Assembly: GCA_944322375.1 (NCBI GenBank) | Contig: CALUOX010000020.1 | Coordinates: 1-34,919 of the forward strand | Direction: 5' to 3' | Length of the DNA: 34,919 bases | Source of the DNA: an uncultured Alistipes sp. | GTDB lineage: Bacteria > Bacteroidota > Bacteroidia > Bacteroidales > Rikenellaceae | Shown: one piece after another, positions 6,791-34,919 of the stretch | How the letters are laid out: the number at the start of each line of letters is the position of its first letter | Numbering within the stretch: position 1 is the first letter of the stretch | Translations under genes and position numbers: made by a program | The notes under the pieces: generated by a model | The model's database searches: none | Seen by the model: only the letters and a program-made list of their open reading frames with translations | Told to the model about the DNA's origin: nothing

Positions 6791-6850
6791 CCACCGACAA
6801 CCGCAGACAGCTGCAGACAACCGCAGATAACCGCAGATAACCGCAGACAA
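6791..6850. repeat. 10-bp tandem repeat (CCGCAGAYAA)
   Basis: Six consecutive 10-base units with no gaps: CCACCGACAA, CCGCAGACAG, CTGCAGACAA, CCGCAGATAA, CCGCAGATAA, CCGCAGACAA. The first unit is the most divergent and the partial unit after 6850 quickly decays. The period is close to one turn of B-DNA, so any bound factor or bend would recur on the same face of the helix. Confidence 0.85.
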
Positions 6851-7000
6851 CCTACAACCCGCTGCAGCTTGACAGACCGTCGAGCGGGCAAAACCGCAAA
6901 TATTGTGAAGAAGCGCGAAATGCGTCTTCATGACAAGACTCCTTTTTTTCAATTTTCAATGTACTTTTTCCCGGCATTTCCAGGCCTGTGTCCGATCTGC

Positions 7001-7054
7001 ATTCGCCTTGAATTCGCCTCGATTCCACCTCGATTCCGCCTCGATTCCGCCTCG
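7001..7054. repeat. 10-11-bp tandem repeat (ATTCCGCCTCG)
   Basis: Five units are visible: ATTCGCCTTGA, ATTCGCCTCG, ATTCCACCTCG and two identical copies of ATTCCGCCTCG. The array lies between the two divergent promoters, about 130 bases upstream of the pssA promoter. Units nearest pssA are the most alike. Confidence 0.8.
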
Positions 7055-7162
7055 ACCGACATCCGACTGCGCTCATCCTTCTACCGACTCATACTCCGAT
7101 TTTCTCCCTCCCGGAACGACTTTTGCAATCCGTTCTGCAAGAACCTTCTGCAGCCGAAATGG

Positions 7163-15065: not shown

Positions 15066-15439
15066 CCGATTTCATTTGGCCCTGCCCTTAACCTTTCATA
15101 TTCGGGCTCCCACCTGAGACCTCCCCTCCGTCCCGGCAGAAGCAACTCGACGTCTGCTTCTGCGCCCGACCTTTCATACTTTGACTCCGACTTGGACACT
15201 CCGTCCCGGCATAGCCAAACTGAAAGCTCCATTTTCATTTGCCGGTGCGTCCGACTTTTCGCACTTTGGCTCCGCCCCGGATACTCCGTCCCGACATAGC
15301 CAAACTGAAAATTCCATTTTCATTTGCCGCTGCGCCCGACTTTTCGTACTTTGGCTCCGCCTCGGATACTCCGTCCCGGCACAGCCAAACTGAAAACTCC
15401 GTTTTCATTTGCCGCTGCGCCCGACTTTTCGTATCTTTG
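15066..15439 (+). repeat. Repeat array 1: five 85-bp promoter-like units
   Basis: Five tandem units end in a promoter. Anchored on the -7-like box, the copies fall at 15099, 15177, 15262, 15347 and 15432, so the last four are exactly 85 bases apart. Boxes read in order TATTCGGG, TACTTTG, CACTTTG, TACTTTG and finally TATCTTTG. Each unit runs roughly GAAAA-TCC-TTTTCATTTGCC, then GCGCCCGACTTTTCG, the box, GGCTCCGCC, GGATACTCCGTCCCGGCA and AGCCAAA. TTTGGCT after the box and AGCCAAA at the unit end form an inverted repeat. Similarity decreases with distance from the downstream gene. There are no unique spacers, so it is not a CRISPR. Confidence 0.9.
15408..15439 (+). promoter_or_regulatory. Promoter at the end of array 1 (GH2-like gene)
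   Basis: TTTG at 15408-15411, exactly 20 bases of spacer, then TATCTTTG at 15432-15439 give a perfect Bacteroidota promoter. The box ends 22 bases before the start codon at 15462. Confidence 0.8.
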
Positions 15440-22415: not shown

Positions 22416-22822
22416 TCCCGACTGACAGGATTCCGATGCATCGGACGCCTATGTGCAAGGGAGGTCCGGCCGTTCATGGCCGCACCCGCCTTGAGTGCTC
22501 CACCGGCAGTTATTAAAGGATCCCCGTCTCCACGTCCGATTTTTCGGACCTTGGCTCCGCCTTGGGTGCTCCGTTCCAAAAGGATCAAACCGGCATCCGA
22601 ACCTGCACTCGGTTTTTCCTGTTTTTGGCGGCGCCCTGAATACGCCGTCCCGGCAGCACCATAGCGAAAACCGTGGCCGCATTTATCTCTGCCCCGGACT
22701 TTTCCCTCTTTGACTAAATCGAAGATCCGCCATCCCGGCAGAGCCTATTTGAAAACAAAGTTTTCATTTCTCTCTGCGCCAGACTTTTTGTACTTTGGCT
22801 GCGCCCTGGATACTCCGTCCCG

Positions 22823-22862
22823 GCAGAGCCAAATTGAAAACAAAGTTTTCATTTGGCTCTGC
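22823..22862. repeat. Long hairpin inside array 2 unit
   Basis: GCAGAGCCAAA (22823-22833) pairs with TTTGGCTCTGC (22852-22862), and GAAAAC (22836-22841) pairs with GTTTTC (22845-22850), giving a 17-bp stem with one bulge and an AAA loop. The right arm contains the TTTG that acts as -33 element in the unit, so the hairpin or its DNA cruciform would mask it. Confidence 0.75.
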
Positions 22863-23009
22863 GCCCGACTTTTCGTACTTTGGCTTCGCCTTGGATACTC
22901 CGTCTCGGCATAGCCAAATTGAAGTTTGCTTCTGCGCCCGACTTTTCGTACTTTGGCTCCGCCTTAGATACTCCGTCTCGGCACAGCCAAATCGAAAACA
23001 GAGTTTTCA

Positions 23010-23041
23010 TTTGTCTCTGCGCTCGACTTTTCGTATCTTTG
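23010..23041 (+). promoter_or_regulatory. Promoter at the end of array 2 (nadC)
   Basis: TTTG at 23010-23013, a spacer of exactly 20 bases, and TATCTTTG at 23034-23041 form a perfect promoter. The nadC start codon is 84 bases further on. Confidence 0.8.
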
Positions 23042-29503: not shown

Positions 29504-31330
29504 ATGGAACAAACCGATCGTCTGCCGCTCAAGGAACAGGTGGCTCTGCTGCCGCTCAAGCCCGGCGTCTATCAATTCCTCGACCGTACGGGGACGATCA
29601 TCTATGTCGGCAAGGCCAAGAGCCTCCGCAAACGCGTCTCCTCGTATTTCATACAGAACAAGGACCATGCACCCAAGGTGCGCGTCATGGTGCGGCAGAT
29701 CGTCGAGATCCGACACATCGTCGTTGACAGCGAAGCCGACGCCCTGCTGCTGGAAAATTCGCTCATCAAAGAGCTCCAACCCCGCTACAACATCCTCCTC
29801 AAGGATGACAAGACCTATCCCTGGATCGTCGTGCGCCGCGAAAATTTTCCGCGCATACAATCCACGCGGCAGCTGCAGCGCGACGGCTCGCTCTACTTCG
29901 GGCCCTACTCGTCGGTCGCGATGCAGCACAGCATTCTGGAGTTCATCCGCGAGGTGATACCGCTGCGCAGCTGCTCGCTCAACCTCGCGCCCGAAGCCAT
30001 CGCCCGCGGGCGGTACAGCGTCTGTCTGCAATACCACCTGGGCAACTGCAAGGGACCCTGCATCGGAGCACAAAGCGCCGAGGAGTACCAACAGCTGCTC
30101 GACATGGCCATTGCCGTCCTCAAGGGCGATCTGCGACCCGTGCGCACCTACCTCGAGGGCGAAATGCAGCGTGCCGCCGAAGCGTTGCAGTTCGAGGCGG
30201 CGCAACGCTTCAAATCGCGGCTCGAAGCGCTGGAGAACTACTCGGCGCGATCGGTCATCGTCAGCGCCCGCATCGTCGATGTCGATGTCTTCTCGCTCAT
30301 CGAGGAGGAGGATGCCTCGGCGGCCTTCTGTAATTTTCTGCGCATCCGCAACGGTTCGATCACGGCCGTTTCGACCATCCGGCTCACGCCGGGCATCGAC
30401 ACCGACCGCGCACAGATGCTGTCGCTGGCGATCCAGCACTTTGCCGAAACATTCGCCGGCGGAAAGCTCGCCCGCGAGGTAATCGTACCCTTTATGCCGG
30501 CGGCCGCACAACTCTTCGACGGCGTAACCTTTACCATACCCAAACGGGGCGAGAAGGCCGATCTGCTGGCCTTCTCGGAGCGCAGCGCCCGCATCTACCG
30601 GGCCGAACAGCTCAAAAACCTCGAGATCAAGAATCCCGAACGCCATACCGAACGGCTGATGGCAGCGATGCAGAAAGAGCTGCGGCTGCCACGTCCGCCG
30701 CGCCACATCGAGTGTTTCGACAATTCCAACCTGCAAGGGACCAATCCGGTTGCTTCGTGCGTCGTCTTCCGCGACGGCCGGCCGTCACGCAAGGAGTACC
30801 GTCACTTCAACATCAAGACGGTCGTCGGGGCCGACGACTTCGCCTCGATGCGCGAGATCGTCTTCCGGCGCTACACGCGCCTCATGGCCGAAGGCGCCGA
30901 GTTGCCCGACCTGGTGATCGTCGATGGCGGAAAGGGACAGTTGTCGAACGCCTACGCAGTCCTGTGCGAGCTGGGGATCGAGAAGCAGGTTCCGATCGTC
31001 GGACTTGCCAAACGGCTCGAAGAGATCTATTATCCGGGGGATTCGATGCCCTACTACCTGAGTCGCACGGGTGAACCGCTCAAGGTCGTCTGCCACATCC
31101 GTGATGAAGCACACCGCTTCGGCATCACCTTCCACCGGCAGAAACGAAGCAAGAACTTTCTGAAGAGCGAGTTGGAAGGGATCACAGGGATCGGCCCGCG
31201 AACCATCGAGACACTGCTGTCACATTTCCGGACCGTTGCCCGCATCCGCGAGGCCTCGGACGAAGAGTTGACCCGATTGATCGGAGCCGCCAAAACGCAC
31301 CGTCTGCGCGAACACTTTGCTCAGATGTGA
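29504..31330 (+). CDS. uvrC: Excinuclease ABC subunit C
   Basis: This 608-residue protein is full length for UvrC, which makes both incisions in nucleotide excision repair with UvrAB. The N-terminal GIY-YIG nuclease is seen in GVYQFLDRTGTIIYVGKAKS (from residue 21). A Cys cluster (RSCSLNL, YSVCLQYH, NCKGPC) fits the known iron-sulfur site. A UVR helix (AAEALQFEAAQRFKSRLEAL) binds UvrB. The C-terminal RNase H-like nuclease shows IECFDNSNLQGTNPVAS and LPDLVIVDGGKGQ, and the helix-hairpin-helix ends the protein (LEGITGIGPRTIETLLSHF). Confidence 0.97.
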   Translation: MEQTDRLPLKEQVALLPLKPGVYQFLDRTGTIIYVGKAKSLRKRVSSYFIQNKDHAPKVRVMVRQIVEIRHIVVDSEADALLLENSLIKELQPRYNILLKDDKTYPWIVVRRENFPRIQSTRQLQRDGSLYFGPYSSVAMQHSILEFIREVIPLRSCSLNLAPEAIARGRYSVCLQYHLGNCKGPCIGAQSAEEYQQLLDMAIAVLKGDLRPVRTYLEGEMQRAAEALQFEAAQRFKSRLEALENYSARSVIVSARIVDVDVFSLIEEEDASAAFCNFLRIRNGSITAVSTIRLTPGIDTDRAQMLSLAIQHFAETFAGGKLAREVIVPFMPAAAQLFDGVTFTIPKRGEKADLLAFSERSARIYRAEQLKNLEIKNPERHTERLMAAMQKELRLPRPPRHIECFDNSNLQGTNPVASCVVFRDGRPSRKEYRHFNIKTVVGADDFASMREIVFRRYTRLMAEGAELPDLVIVDGGKGQLSNAYAVLCELGIEKQVPIVGLAKRLEEIYYPGDSMPYYLSRTGEPLKVVCHIRDEAHRFGITFHRQKRSKNFLKSELEGITGIGPRTIETLLSHFRTVARIREASDEELTRLIGAAKTHRLREHFAQM

Positions 31331-31846: not shown

Positions 31847-31933
31847 GCCCAGATGGCGGAATCGGTAGACGCGTTGGTCTCAAACACCAATGATAGCAAT
31901 ATCGTGCCGGTTCGACCCCGGCTCTGGGTACCA
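31847..31933 (+). tRNA. tRNA-Leu (anticodon CAA)
   Basis: The 87-base sequence folds as a class II tRNA. The acceptor GCCCAGA pairs with TCTGGGT (one G-T pair); discriminator A and the CCA end are encoded (31931-31933). The anticodon stem TTGGT/ACCAA holds the loop CTCAAAC with anticodon CAA, which reads the Leu codon UUG. The long variable arm GATA-GCAA-TATC is typical for Leu, and the T arm is GCCGG-TTCGACC-CCGGC. The AT-rich segment beginning just downstream suggests that this tRNA end serves as an integration point. Confidence 0.95.
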
Positions 31934-31980: not shown

Positions 31981-32065
31981 TTTCTGGATTTTCCCCACAT
32001 TTTCCCCACACGTGCTGTGAATGATGTTTGACTTGGCTGTTAGCAGGGTGATTTTTGTCGGAAAA
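31960..32065 (-). pseudogene. Possible integrase C-terminal remnant
   Basis: On the minus strand a short frame, open only from about 32065, encodes a basic tail that includes STCGENVGKIQKIKIA and stops inside the tRNA terminator stem. The underlying DNA is a direct repeat TTTTCCCCACA at 31990-32011. From memory, CGENVGK-like tails occur at the C terminus of tyrosine integrases of Bacteroidota elements that insert at tRNA genes. No catalytic part is present, so at most a scar of such a gene remains. This is a tentative reading. Confidence 0.25.
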
Positions 32066-32133: not shown

Positions 32134-32141
32134 TATTTTTG
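32134..32141 (+). promoter_or_regulatory. Promoter -7 box of PIN-like gene
   Basis: TATTTTTG matches TAnnTTTG and ends 46 bases before the start codon. No clear -33 TTTG is seen at normal spacing, and the region is AT-rich, so chance matches are easier here. Confidence 0.45.
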
Positions 32142-32187: not shown

Positions 32188-34065
32188 ATGAAAACCTTAA
32201 ATGATACATTGGCAAATTATTGTTTCCTTGCTGCCTTGACAGAAAATCAGAATGATTTATATAATCATGTATATGTACCTATCTGCAAAAGAGCATTGAG
32301 TTTATATAGCTTAAGAGGTGCTTCTCAAGGGACAGTCCAAGATATTCAAGAAATTATAAAACAAGAATATGGAATTGATGTTCCTGTTCTTATTGTTCGA
32401 AAATTAATAGAGTCTGTCTTTTCTTCTTTATCACGACGCAAGAAAACTGAATTAGGAGCGCAATGTTTTGAACACGGTAATTCGTTCCAATTAACTCAAT
32501 ATTCTTTTACAGAGTTAGAGGCAAAATATAAAAAAGGCTTACGGAATGCATCAAAACTTGAATTGGCTTTTAATACATATCTTGCAACTGAACAGATTGA
32601 TTCGTCAAAACTTCCATCGTTAACGGATTTCTTGGATAGGAACAAATGTCAAATTGCTTCTTTTTTTAGAGGCAATGGCGTGATTAAAAGGGATGATATT
32701 GAACATTCCTTCATTTATCATGTCCAATTCTTAGAATACTTAAATACATCTGATGATGAGTTGTTTCAAATTGCAGAGCAATTGTATTTAGGTACCATAG
32801 TAGCAGGTTTTTTGGAATCAGGAATCAATGTTGAAACTAATTTTGCTTCTAATGAAGTTTACTACATTGATACACCTCTTATTTTGCGAGCTTTAGATTT
32901 ACAAAAAGAAGAGGAGACAAAACCAGCATTGGAATTATTAGATTTAATCAGAAATACAGGTGGTACGATTAAAGTTTTATCTGTCACTTTAAATGAACTC
33001 AGTGAAGTAATTTCTAATGCGGTTGACAGCTATAATAATAAACAACCTATTACGACTATAAATGATGCATGCTTAAGGTTAGGTAGAAATAAGGCATGGT
33101 TAATTAATATTGGCGCTAGAATTGAAGATTATGTTTGTCAAACGCTTAAAGTTTCGAAAGAAAATATAGGAACACCTTTATTGGAGAAATTTGAGAAAAG
33201 TCCTGATGTAAAAGCATTGAAAGATACCCGTAAAAAGAAGGGTAATGCTTTTCATGATGTTGCTGCATATTTATTTGTTAGGGAACAGCGTGGAGCTGTA
33301 ATAAGTAGTTTCCAAAAAGGTAAATACTGGTTTGTTACAACAAACTATGATCTTCTTCTGTTTAATAAAGAACATGCATCCGTAAAAGGTGTAACTGAAA
33401 TTGTTTTGCCGGATGTTCTTACTAGTATGCTATGGTTGAAAGATCCTGCAAAGTTAACATCCCAAGTTCGAAAGATTGGATTGCGAGAATTGATGGCCAC
33501 AACGTTGAACGAAGAAATAGCAAGTAAAGAGTTAATTGGAGAATTTGAAGCTGCAATTTCATCGTTGGATAGTGTATCTGACGAAGATTATCGCATTCTT
33601 TTGGAATCAGTTGCTTGTCAATCAGCTAAAAAAATTGCACATTTCAATGAATTGGTTGTACAAGATAAGAATTTAGCAAAACAGCAGGCTATTAGTATTG
33701 TAGAGAAGGAAAAAACTCGTAAGGTCAAACAAGCACAAAAGATTAAAGAGGCATTGGATGCCCAAAAACAAGAGGCCGATAATAATGCTCTATTAAGCCA
33801 GCGGATAAAAGCATTGGAAGATAAGCATATTCAATTCAGAACAGAAATTGAGAAACTATCTTTACAGATTACAAATCATAAGAGGATTATGCTAAAGGCT
33901 GTAATAGGATTGATAATAGCCATAATTCTGATGTATTTTGCTATTCAGGGATTCAAGAATTTCTCAACAATATTATCTCGAATTATCGCTGTAATACTTT
34001 CAGGTGGTGGATTATGGGGTTTCTGTTCATTTTTAATCAATTTATATAAGGTAATTTGCAAATAG
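32188..34065 (+). CDS. Membrane-anchored PIN-like nuclease with N-terminal helical region (candidate defence gene)
   Basis: The 625-residue protein is not one I recognise as a named family. Residues 1-210 are mainly helical; 48-80 could be a helix-turn-helix-like segment (GTVQDIQEIIKQEYG). Residues about 222-415 have the layout of a PIN-type RNase: YYIDTPLIL with Asp228, LSVTLNELSEVI with Glu270, AFHDVAAYLF with Asp357, and WFVTTNYDLLLF with Asp388. Residues about 490-565 are charged, heptad-like and Ala/Gln/Lys-rich, likely a coiled coil. Two hydrophobic spans follow (568-586 and 595-620), placing the nuclease on the cytoplasmic side. Codons are strongly AT-ending, unlike every other gene in the window, and it stands alone beside a tRNA gene, which indicates horizontal transfer. 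A role in abortive anti-phage defence by RNA cleavage is an inference; a stand-alone toxin or housekeeping RNase is possible. Confidence 0.7.
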   Translation: MKTLNDTLANYCFLAALTENQNDLYNHVYVPICKRALSLYSLRGASQGTVQDIQEIIKQEYGIDVPVLIVRKLIESVFSSLSRRKKTELGAQCFEHGNSFQLTQYSFTELEAKYKKGLRNASKLELAFNTYLATEQIDSSKLPSLTDFLDRNKCQIASFFRGNGVIKRDDIEHSFIYHVQFLEYLNTSDDELFQIAEQLYLGTIVAGFLESGINVETNFASNEVYYIDTPLILRALDLQKEEETKPALELLDLIRNTGGTIKVLSVTLNELSEVISNAVDSYNNKQPITTINDACLRLGRNKAWLINIGARIEDYVCQTLKVSKENIGTPLLEKFEKSPDVKALKDTRKKKGNAFHDVAAYLFVREQRGAVISSFQKGKYWFVTTNYDLLLFNKEHASVKGVTEIVLPDVLTSMLWLKDPAKLTSQVRKIGLRELMATTLNEEIASKELIGEFEAAISSLDSVSDEDYRILLESVACQSAKKIAHFNELVVQDKNLAKQQAISIVEKEKTRKVKQAQKIKEALDAQKQEADNNALLSQRIKALEDKHIQFRTEIEKLSLQITNHKRIMLKAVIGLIIAIILMYFAIQGFKNFSTILSRIIAVILSGGGLWGFCSFLINLYKVICK

Positions 34066-34376
34066 TTTACTGGGCGGTTTTTAGTTGTCATTCTTCCCGT
34101 TTAGTAGCGACAAGCCGAGGTCATAGGATGGATTGTATGCAAGATTATTGGCCGGATTTCGTCATGATTTTGTGACTTGTTTTTGTGGTAGAAAGGAATG
34201 GATATTGTTTTGTCGTCTTTGAGCTACGATACCTTCAGATTTGCTCTATCCGTTCACTCTCACACATTGTATCACCTTCGGAGAGAATGTGGAGAACATT
34301 TTGAGGACCAGCCTCAAAAAAGCAAGGTCTTTTTATGAGGTAATAATTACGAGTATAGCAATTGTGTGCTTTTGGG
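34066..34376. other. AT-rich spacer at the right end of the insert
   Basis: No supportable gene. An open frame on the plus strand from a TTG at 34241 runs antisense into the next gene and is probably spurious. Base composition moves from AT-rich to host-like between about 34340 and 34440. Two competing hairpins at 34301-34340 are listed separately. Confidence 0.55.
34301..34340. terminator. Overlapping alternative hairpins downstream of the last gene
   Basis: CCTCA+AAAAAG (34312-34322) pairs with CTTTTT+TGAGG (34329-34340) with one bulged base, forming an 11-bp stem. The same CCTCAA (34312-34317) also pairs with TTGAGG (34301-34306), so the two folds exclude each other. The site lies 37 bases beyond the stop codon of the minus-strand gene and 250 bases after the PIN-like gene, so it may end either transcript. 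Confidence 0.4.
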
Positions 34377-34919
34377 TTATGATCTTTCGGGCAGTGTCAG
34401 CGGAATATCTGGATAGAGTGTTTCGTAGGGTTGCATTGGCTCCAGAGTTTGCGGACGGCTGGCCGTGCGGAGGAAATTCCAGAAATCTGCGGGAAAGTGC
34501 ACGACTTGTCCCACATGGGAGCGAAGTGTGGTCAACACCACACGGCCATCGCTCAGCCTTCCGATGTGTTCGAGTTTTTCGCTGCCGAACATCCCGGGAC
34601 GGATGCGCAGCACCTCGCCGGTCGTGCGGTTCCAGAGCCGGGCGAAATCCAGCCGCATCGAGTCGCACGCTCCTTTGATCAGCACCCAGTCGTCACCAAA
34701 CGGGAGAAGATTCGACCAGGGATCTACATTCTGCATCCGGGTAGTCCGGCAGCGACGCGTATCGACGTCGAGTTCCAATAGTCGGGCGACCAACTCCCGG
34801 TCCGAGAAACCGCACATTACCAGACGGCCGGTTCCGGGGACGGGGATGGAGCCGTTGAACCCGTCGCCGCTCAATATGTGGAAGCCCAGCGGTGAGAGCG
34901 AGCCGTTTTCGAAACAATA
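34377..34919 (-). CDS. Unknown protein, C-terminal part, beta-propeller-like (partial)
   Basis: The frame is open to the right edge, so the start lies outside; 180 C-terminal residues are visible. They contain alternating short strands with recurring patterns such as GFHILSGDGFNG, RLVMCGFSDRELVARL, DDWVLIKGACDSM, RLWNRTTGEVLRI and GRVVLTTLRSHVG, as in blades of a beta-propeller. I do not recognise the family. Base and codon use are G+C-rich like the core genes to the left and unlike the PIN-like gene, so the chromosomal backbone resumes here. A TTG at 34874 could be read as a start, but the clear coding pattern continues upstream of it. Confidence 0.6.
   Translation of the reverse strand, partial: YCFENGSLSPLGFHILSGDGFNGSIPVPGTGRLVMCGFSDRELVARLLELDVDTRRCRTTRMQNVDPWSNLLPFGDDWVLIKGACDSMRLDFARLWNRTTGEVLRIRPGMFGSEKLEHIGRLSDGRVVLTTLRSHVGQVVHFPADFWNFLRTASRPQTLEPMQPYETLYPDIPLTLPERS

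What the first reader, a model, noticed from the sequence alone, without database searches (positions are those of the whole stretch)
32188..34065. Lone AT-rich gene: PIN-like nuclease, coiled coil and two C-terminal membrane spans
The order helical N terminus, PIN-like core with four well-spaced acids (D228, E270, D357, D388), coiled coil and two spans is not one I can assign to a described system. Its composition differs strongly from all neighbours, it has no partner gene, and it stands in the spacer after a tRNA gene, a usual place for defence cargo. A membrane-tethered RNase that is released or clustered on infection would be a new single-gene defence type.
Basis: partly seen in the sequence, partly recalled or inferred. 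Interest (0 to 1): 0.82.

Follow-up and report, generated by a model that had tools for sequence, protein, structure and literature searches.

The report
Membrane-anchored PIN-like defence nuclease candidate
A lone, foreign-looking bacterial gene encodes a probable membrane-anchored nuclease whose scattered relatives often sit inside or beside anti-virus gene clusters, so it is probably an undescribed antiviral defence protein, though nothing has been tested in the laboratory.

Summary
The ORF at 32188-34065 (625 aa, 33% GC) stands alone after tRNA-Leu(caa) in DNA of 53-64% GC. It belongs to a full-length family for which the libraries searched hold no model. The first half of the core matches PIN_3 (86.7%; shuffles up to 0.52%); the second half does not. 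No structure could be predicted. The family is rare, spans seven phyla and is absent from 36 other genomes of the genus. The locus is an insertion of about 2.35 kb at a variable tRNA site. At 8 of 32 related loci it lies in or beside type I restriction-modification genes; six more have other defence-like neighbours, and two E. coli copies lie in P2-like prophages. Best reading: a membrane-tethered PIN-like defence effector.

The parts
31847..31933 (+). tRNA-Leu (anticodon caa), the insertion landmark
   Evidence: ARAGORN; Rfam RF00005; the same tRNA follows uvrC in the 9 relatives of the genus that were fetched for this
31989..32010 (+). two tandem copies of TTTTCCCCACA in the tRNA 3' flank, part of a flank shared to 32021 with L092 and to 32015 with L087; possibly an integrase-related end (inference)
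   Evidence: exact copies at 31989 and 32000; local alignments to L092 and L087
32022..34375 (.). inserted DNA of about 2.35 kb holding only this gene; in relative L085 the downstream gene follows the tRNA after about 90 bases
   Evidence: homology to L092 ends at 32021; homology to L085 resumes at 34376
32134..32141 (+). candidate Bacteroidota-type -7 element TATTTTTG, 46 bases before the ATG (consensus TAnnTTTG recalled)
   Evidence: 16 matches in the window, mean 7.05 in shuffles (3 of 100 shuffles reach 16), so weak
32188..34065 (+). the gene, 625 aa: N-terminal region, PIN-like core, coiled coil, two membrane spans
32188..32487 (+). N-terminal region, residues 1-100, winged-helix-like pattern (inference from the alignment)
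   Evidence: read by eye
32842..33471 (+). PIN-like core, residues 219-428
   Evidence: alignment A14; hhalign to PIN_3; Pfam PIN_3 in 2 and PIN in 2 of 24 members
32869..32871 (+). D228 codon, invariant first acid (YxDT motif)
   Evidence: 24 of 24
32995..32997 (+). E270 codon, second acid
   Evidence: 22 of 24, Q in 2
33256..33258 (+). D357 codon, invariant third acid
   Evidence: 24 of 24
33289..33291 (+). R368 codon, invariant
   Evidence: 24 of 24
33343..33345 (+).
   Evidence: N or D in 21 of 24; N in all 8 rows of A15
33670..33885 (+). coiled coil, about residues 495-566
   Evidence: charged helical stretch; coiled-coil type hits in this stretch
33886..33942 (+). first hydrophobic span, residues 567-585
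   Evidence: Kyte-Doolittle 2.58
33982..34038 (+). second hydrophobic span, residues 599-617
   Evidence: Kyte-Doolittle 2.07

Best explanation
The gene is a horizontally acquired antiviral effector: a cytoplasmic PIN-like metal-dependent nuclease, probably a ribonuclease, tethered to the inner membrane by a C-terminal two-helix hairpin and gathered by its coiled coil. The N-terminal winged-helix-like region is the likely sensor or regulator. It stays silent in healthy cells; infection, or a phage attack on a neighbouring restriction system, would free the nuclease, which would cut RNA and stop growth (abortive infection). Shown: the family, its conserved residues, spans by hydropathy, patchy distribution, the insertion site, defence neighbourhoods of relatives. 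Inferred: the complete PIN fold, the winged helix, topology, RNA as target, sensing and release.
For: D228, D357 and R368 invariant, E270 in 22 of 24, N/D at 386 in 21 of 24; all five sites kept in five further members. hhalign of the core to PIN_3: 86.7%, E 4.4e-6, 30 column shuffles up to 0.52%. C-terminal hydrophobic segments in 23 of 24 members: two separate ones in 21, one in L032 and L041, none in L043, an ORF of only 517 aa. Rare: 7 of 393 order genomes after one false hit was dropped, 7 of 395 in the phylum sample, one a split copy and one the window's own, 0 of 36 other genus genomes, 2 of 5426 E. coli genomes by DNA search. Near-empty site in L085; other occupants of the site include two integrases, a KAP NTPase and an HSDR_N protein. 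HsdM and HsdS homologues at 8 of 32 loci; 4 of 13 phylum genomes have HsdM_N within 10 kb of the member, 0.15 expected, P 1.8e-5 (test chosen after the pattern was seen). The RM label needs 7 changes on the tree, 6 forced. Six further loci with defence-like neighbours. Gene GC below that of flanks more than 3 kb away at 16 of 16 loci measured.
Against: No structure; the second half of the core does not match PIN_3 on its own (0.7%, shuffles up to 1.15%). VapC- and PIN_8-type profiles match weakly (2.9% each), whereas PIN_3 against VapC, the yardstick, gives 97.5%. PDB profile searches hit no PIN protein. Controls for hhalign were shuffles and one reversal, not other real folds. The window genome has no HsdM_N hit; the other genes of the window were not scanned for defence families. 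18 of 32 related loci showed no defence neighbour that I recognised, partly because stretches are short (L028, L040 under 4 kb) or neighbours were not searched. No activity data. Rarity fits any accessory gene. No match in 50,697 phage records.
Confidence: 0.55

Rival explanations
1. SNIPE-like: the membrane-held nuclease cuts phage DNA as it enters through the inner membrane; the tether gives self/non-self discrimination, and no suicide is involved.
For: Same general plan: membrane anchor plus cytoplasmic nuclease in one protein; SNIPE lacking its anchor was toxic (PMC13190303, passages). Some PIN-superfamily nucleases cut DNA (recalled).
Against: Different nuclease (GIY-YIG against PIN-like), spans at the other end, no DUF4041 match in the window protein. 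The PIN defence proteins DS-3 and DS-5 are described as RNases (PMC13092281, passages).
Confidence: 0.15
2. Back-up effector of a restriction system (PrrC-like): the RM complex keeps the nuclease silent, and a phage anti-restriction protein releases it.
For: Hsd genes with the member at 8 of 32 loci, with ORFs overlapping hsdS by 17-20 bases at L026, L030 and L035 (stop codons not counted, first possible starts). PrrC is silenced by a linked type I RM enzyme (start of the abstract of PMC2610378); PIN RNases are described among back-up effectors in BREX loci (PMC12839542, passages).
Against: The window genome has no HsdM_N hit; 24 of 32 loci show no type I RM within the stretch fetched; the label is scattered on the tree, so RM is not obligatory. 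PrrC is not a PIN protein (recalled).
Confidence: 0.15
3. Plasmid or island maintenance toxin of the VapC kind with an unseen antidote.
For: PIN-like core; members on plasmids of Enterococcus, Sporosarcina, Hymenobacter, Pantoea, Klebsiella and Arthrobacter.
Against: The window insertion holds one convincing gene; the protein is four to five times the size of VapC (recalled size), with a coiled coil and spans; core to VapC profile only 2.9%. A shared small partner gene among relatives was not looked for systematically.
Confidence: 0.08
4. An accessory membrane protein with no antiviral role; the acidic motif is for something other than nuclease action.
For: No assay; PIN evidence covers half of the core.
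Against: Acids and arginine kept across seven phyla; RM neighbourhoods above expectation.
Confidence: 0.07

Closest known systems
PIN_3 / VapC-type PIN domains (PF13470, PF01850)
   Same: D-T motif at the end of strand 1 and the following 58 columns align to PIN_3; 2 of 24 members hit PIN_3 (best E 5.9e-4) and 2 hit PIN (best E 0.05)
   Different: 625 aa; about 85 residues between E270 and D357; second half not matched by profile; VapC profile only 2.9%; N-terminal region, coiled coil and spans added
DS-3 (DefensePredictor, PMC13092281; passages read)
   Same: single protein with a PIN nuclease and no antidote; catalytic residues needed for defence
   Different: its PIN domain is split between the N and C termini, ours is one central stretch; the DS-3 sequence was not compared
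SNIPE (PMC13190303; abstract and passages read)
   Same: one-gene membrane-bound nuclease
   Different: GIY-YIG nuclease, DUF4041, anchor near the N terminus
PrrC / RloC (starts of abstracts of PMC2610378 and PMC3874168)
   Same: nuclease gene linked to type I RM in some hosts
   Different: PrrC and RloC are ABC-ATPase anticodon nucleases (partly recalled); no such domain found in the window protein
TgvAB, type I RM-embedded defence (PMC11411939; passages read)
   Same: extra defence genes inside an hsd operon
   Different: GmrSD-like type IV restriction, two proteins

Membership tests
PIN domain superfamily | strand-D-T start and acid after strand 2 | tested here: met
   hhalign 86.7% to PIN_3, 30 shuffles up to 0.52%; D228 24 of 24, E270 22 of 24; against VapC only 2.9%
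PIN domain superfamily | third and fourth acidic sites in the second half of the fold | tested here: inconclusive
   D357 24 of 24, N/D at 386 in 21 of 24, but the second half alone does not match PIN_3 (0.7%), VapC (0.2%) or PIN_8 (0.5%) above shuffles
PIN domain superfamily | alpha/beta PIN fold with clustered acids | not testable with these tools
   structure prediction switched off
VapBC toxin-antitoxin | small PIN toxin with an adjacent antitoxin gene | tested here: not met
   625 aa; only convincing gene in the insertion; neighbours of relatives not compared systematically for a small partner
SNIPE | GIY-YIG nuclease and DUF4041 | tested here: not met
   no such Pfam match for the window protein up to E 10, nor among the 25 of 38 families listed for the 24 members
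PrrC / RloC anticodon nucleases | ABC-ATPase domain with C-terminal nuclease | tested here: not met
   no ABC or AAA match in the window protein up to E 10; two other members hit AAA_11 at E 0.13 at best
Known anti-phage systems in PADLOC-DB 2.0.0 | match to a system model | tested here: not met
   0 for P0001 up to E 10; two lone weak hits among 24 members, PD-Lambda-5_A E 0.0028 and LeoA E 0.0031
Type I RM-embedded gene | lies in or beside an hsd cluster | tested here: inconclusive
   8 of 32 related loci yes; the window copy no; window genome without HsdM_N
DS-3 | sequence relation | not tested
   sequence not at hand
Anti-phage defence | protects against phage | not testable with these tools
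   needs an experiment

The most novel reading that the evidence does not exclude
A new, widespread one-protein defence family: a PIN-like RNase parked on the inner membrane by a C-terminal hairpin, which works alone in some hosts and has been recruited repeatedly into type I RM operons as a membrane-tethered second line that fires when restriction is beaten or when phage DNA crosses the membrane.
Probability: 0.3. Interest if true: 0.82.

Novelty: new variant of a known kind. Interest (0 to 1): 0.6.

Why it matters
If it is a defence protein, it adds a family with a layout (winged-helix-like region, PIN-like nuclease, coiled coil, membrane hairpin) that the libraries searched here do not model, yet that occurs in Bacteroidota, Bacillota, Actinomycetota, Pseudomonadota, Desulfobacterota, Planctomycetota and Chloroflexota. 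It would link two open questions: how one-gene nucleases stay silent without an antidote, and why extra nucleases are built into restriction operons. Open-frame members from E. coli prophages, and a type I RM-embedded set, make both testable in ordinary laboratory strains.

Tried and rejected
Profile searches of PDB with the whole family and with the core gave no PIN protein. hhalign of the core to VapC-type PIN (23 of 25 fetched loci used; two gave no ORF by my rule) and to PIN_8 (three loci; the ORF taken from L110 is probably not the PIN_8 protein) was weak, 2.9% each, above the 12 shuffles of each (up to 0.54% and 0.29%) but far below the PIN_3-VapC yardstick of 97.5%. L009 (viral contig) was dropped: the match is a tail-fibre-like ORF by eye. 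L007/L037 (G313) was dropped: coiled coil only. L036 (G409) is a copy split between two ORFs and L049 (Listeria plasmid) a fragment; both were left out of the alignments. dN/dS against the closest relative gave dN 0.30 and no usable dS. The first placing of the E. coli members in the family alignment seemed to lack D357 and R368; a new alignment shows both present, so that reading was dropped. A direct repeat of the tRNA 3' end at the right border was not found. A rule-of-thumb secondary-structure plot was too crude to use. The window's own genome holds one copy only. Ten paper searches listed no paper that I could see describes this layout; I read outlines, passages or one section of five or six of the listed papers, not the rest. 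A preprint and a prophage paper that may mention related genes (10.1101/2024.01.29.577857; 10.1016/j.chom.2025.04.021) are not held, so prior description cannot be excluded.

Full report
The observation. Window 32188-34065 (+) is an open frame of 625 codons with an ATG start. Its GC is 0.33; the 1-kb windows up to 32000 run from 0.53 to 0.64. It follows uvrC (29504-31330, named by eye from the protein) and a tRNA-Leu(caa) at 31847-31933. Between the tRNA and the next gene on the other strand (34377-34919 and beyond) it is the only convincing gene. A possible Bacteroidota-type -7 element, TATTTTTG, lies at 32134-32141, but the pattern occurs 16 times in the window with a shuffle mean of 7, so it is weak evidence; the consensus is recalled. 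No call names the organism; I take it to be of the Bacteroidota from recall of its proteins.

It is a real family. A single-sequence search of 393 genomes of the order listed 8; one, G313, matches by its coiled coil alone and was dropped, leaving 7 including the window's own genome; this search missed G020, also of the order, which a profile found later, so the count is a lower bound. A profile search found 7 of 395 genomes of the phylum sample, counting the window's own and one with the gene split in two, and 4 of 61 close relatives including the own genome, with 0 of the 36 other genomes of the genus. Plasmid records gave 7 with the window protein, 12 with the Paenibacillus member, 2 Hymenobacter records with a member of a second branch and 11 with an E. 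coli member, with overlap. One scan of genome contigs gave six loci: Paenibacillus, Chloroflexi, Humidesulfovibrio, Planctomycetota, Hymenobacter and an unassigned MAG. Six scans of viral contigs gave two true members, L038 and L045; one hit was false and three scans gave none. A DNA search found a member in 2 of 5426 E. coli genomes. Four protein searches of 50,697 phage records found nothing.

No library searched models it. The window protein has no significant match in Pfam, PADLOC, NCBIfam, PHROGs or PDB. Scanning the 24 aligned members one by one gave, in Pfam, PIN_3 in two (best E 5.9e-4), PIN in two (best 0.05), DUF2207_C in four, MCU in three and scattered single hits (25 of 38 families shown); in PADLOC two lone weak hits; in NCBIfam TIGR04211 (SH3_and_anchor) in three members (best E 2.6e-5), which in the window protein matches the coiled coil and first span far below its cut-off, and one stray hit.

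Anatomy. In the 24-row alignment D228, D357 and R368 are invariant, E270 is in 22 (Q in two), 229 is T or S throughout, 386 is N in 14, D in 7 and T in 3, and D388 is in 5. Five further members, both E. coli ones among them, keep D228, E270, D357, R368 and N386. The core (residues 219-428) was compared with a PIN_3 alignment of 8 sequences taken from 11 fetched loci: 86.7%, E 4.4e-6, over 58 columns from strand 1 past E270; 30 column shuffles reached 0.52% at most and the reversed alignment 0.55%. The second half alone did not match (0.7%, shuffles up to 1.15%). With the insert columns left out the score rose to 93.7% (shuffles up to 0.71%), although the second half in that alignment is out of the expected register. 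VapC-type and PIN_8 profiles matched weakly, 2.9% each, while PIN_3 against VapC gives 97.5%. No other real fold was used as a decoy. I hold the PIN assignment as likely, not proven. Hydrophobic C-terminal segments were found in 23 of 24 members: two separate ones in 21, one in L032 and in L041; L043, an ORF of 517 aa that stops early, has none. The N-terminal 100 residues read, by eye, like a winged helix (conserved F-G-L-D-x-P, then a G-Y-L-x-K wing); this is inference.

How it got there. The uvrC-tRNA-Leu(caa) site was searched in 61 genomes of the genus and fetched from nine in which both lay close together; others with both on one contig, such as G792, G813, G819 and G821, were not fetched. 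In L085 the gene that lies downstream in the window follows the tRNA after about 90 bases (84% identity), so that genome shows a near-empty site. Homology to L092 runs to 32021 and homology to L085 resumes at 34376: about 2.35 kb with one convincing gene. In the others the site is followed by tyrosine integrases (L088, L089), a KAP NTPase (L090) or an HSDR_N protein (L091); L084, L086 and L087 were not searched, and L092 ends at a contig border. The tandem TTTTCCCCACA copies at 31989-32010 are also in L092 and nearly so in L087. No integrase was recognised in the window insertion.

Neighbourhoods of the relatives. HsdM and HsdS homologues (phmmer, E up to 1e-8) were found at 8 of 32 loci (L026, L030, L031, L033, L035, L039, L041, L043) and HsdR at 7 of them, not L035 (Pfam names). 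The 32 include three near-copies from E. faecium plasmids, the split copy L036 and the fragment L049. In L030 the order is hsdM, member, hsdS, hsdR on one strand, with a gap of about 30 bases and a 17-base overlap of ORFs; in L026 and L035 the ORFs of member and hsdS overlap by 20 bases (stop codons not counted, first possible starts). In L033 the member lies between an OLD-like ATPase and a Schlafen/AlbA protein inside the hsd cluster. As a control, HsdM_N was counted in 13 genomes of the window's phylum that hold a member: 28 hits, fragments included, give 0.15 expected within 10 kb of the 13 members, against 4 seen (G103, G540, G594, G641), P 1.8e-5; rounded genome sizes were used and the test was chosen after the pattern was seen. 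The RM loci need 7 changes on the 29-row tree (6 forced by well-supported branches; shuffled mean 7.1), so the association is not one inherited event; the tree has several long branches. Flanking stretches are up to about 10 kb a side and often shorter; L028 and L040 are contigs of under 4 kb. Other defence-like neighbours: a CBASS-like set in Sporosarcina (nucleotidyltransferase, ThiF, Mov34, SAVED), a helicase and DNA methyltransferase with CHAT proteins in Hymenobacter, TIR, SIR2 and Piwi proteins in H. qilianensis, qatC and qatD in H. monticola, an integrase, ResIII and DNA methylase in a planctomycete, and an AAA_15/AAA_21 ATPase beside L025. That makes 14 of 32; the other 18 showed none that I recognised, and not all of their neighbours were searched. 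In E. coli, one member lies in a P2-like prophage between the tail sheath and tail-fibre-assembly genes, on the other strand, the place of the P2 Z/fun accessory locus (recalled); the other lies in a P2-like prophage remnant by an Ogr-like gene. The P2 hotspot studied in PMC9122126 (section 10 read) is a different one, between genes A and Q. Enterococcus and Klebsiella plasmid copies sit among transposases. At 16 of 16 loci measured so, the gene is poorer in GC than the flanks more than 3 kb away.

Mechanism. I commit to a membrane-tethered PIN-like defence effector, most likely an RNase acting by growth arrest (0.55). The tether and coiled coil would hold and cluster it; the N-terminal region would sense or regulate. 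The rivals are a SNIPE-like DNA nuclease at the entry site (0.15), a PrrC-like back-up of restriction (0.15), a maintenance toxin (0.08) and a non-defence protein (0.07). The window genome (98% complete) lacks an HsdM_N hit, with HsdS-type domains only in one 1261-aa frame on another contig, so this copy probably does not depend on a resident type I system of the usual kind.

What is known. DS-3 is a validated single protein whose PIN domain is split between the termini and DS-5 a validated two-gene PIN system (PMC13092281, passages); that paper says a PIN domain had also been validated elsewhere, citing sources of which two could not be opened here. SNIPE is a membrane-bound GIY-YIG nuclease that cuts phage DNA at entry (PMC13190303, abstract and passages). 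TgvAB is a defence pair inside a type I RM operon (PMC11411939, passages). PIN RNases are described among back-up effectors in BREX loci (PMC12839542, passages). The kinds are therefore known; this family and layout I did not find in ten searches of the library held. I rate it a new variant of a known kind, interest 0.6.

Noticed in passing
window 15160-15439 and 22680-23041: Two arrays of a related 85-base tandem repeat (3.3 and 4.4 copies). The 16-mer GACTTTTCGTACTTTG from it occurs exactly 17 times in the genome, on 11 contigs; the backwards control 0.
   Followed up: partly
L050:6603-7247 and L051:6713-7207: In both Hymenobacter plasmids a P63C-domain protein gene lies just upstream of the family member on the same strand; a possible partner in that branch.
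   Followed up: no
L088, about 1190-1420 on the reversed strand: The tRNA-Leu 3' end and its terminator are repeated directly about 150 bases downstream, before an integrase gene: a likely attachment-site repeat at the same hotspot (seen by eye; integrase).
   Followed up: no
L036:9817-11812 (G409): A family member split between two overlapping ORFs, so probably broken or mis-sequenced.
   Followed up: no
L043:9130-9903: A YgjP-like metallopeptidase gene lies between hsdR and the family member in Hymenobacter telluris.
   Followed up: no
window 6796-6852 and 7004-7055: Short tandem repeats of 10 and 11 bases (GACAACCGCA, CGCCTCGATTC) close together.
   Followed up: no
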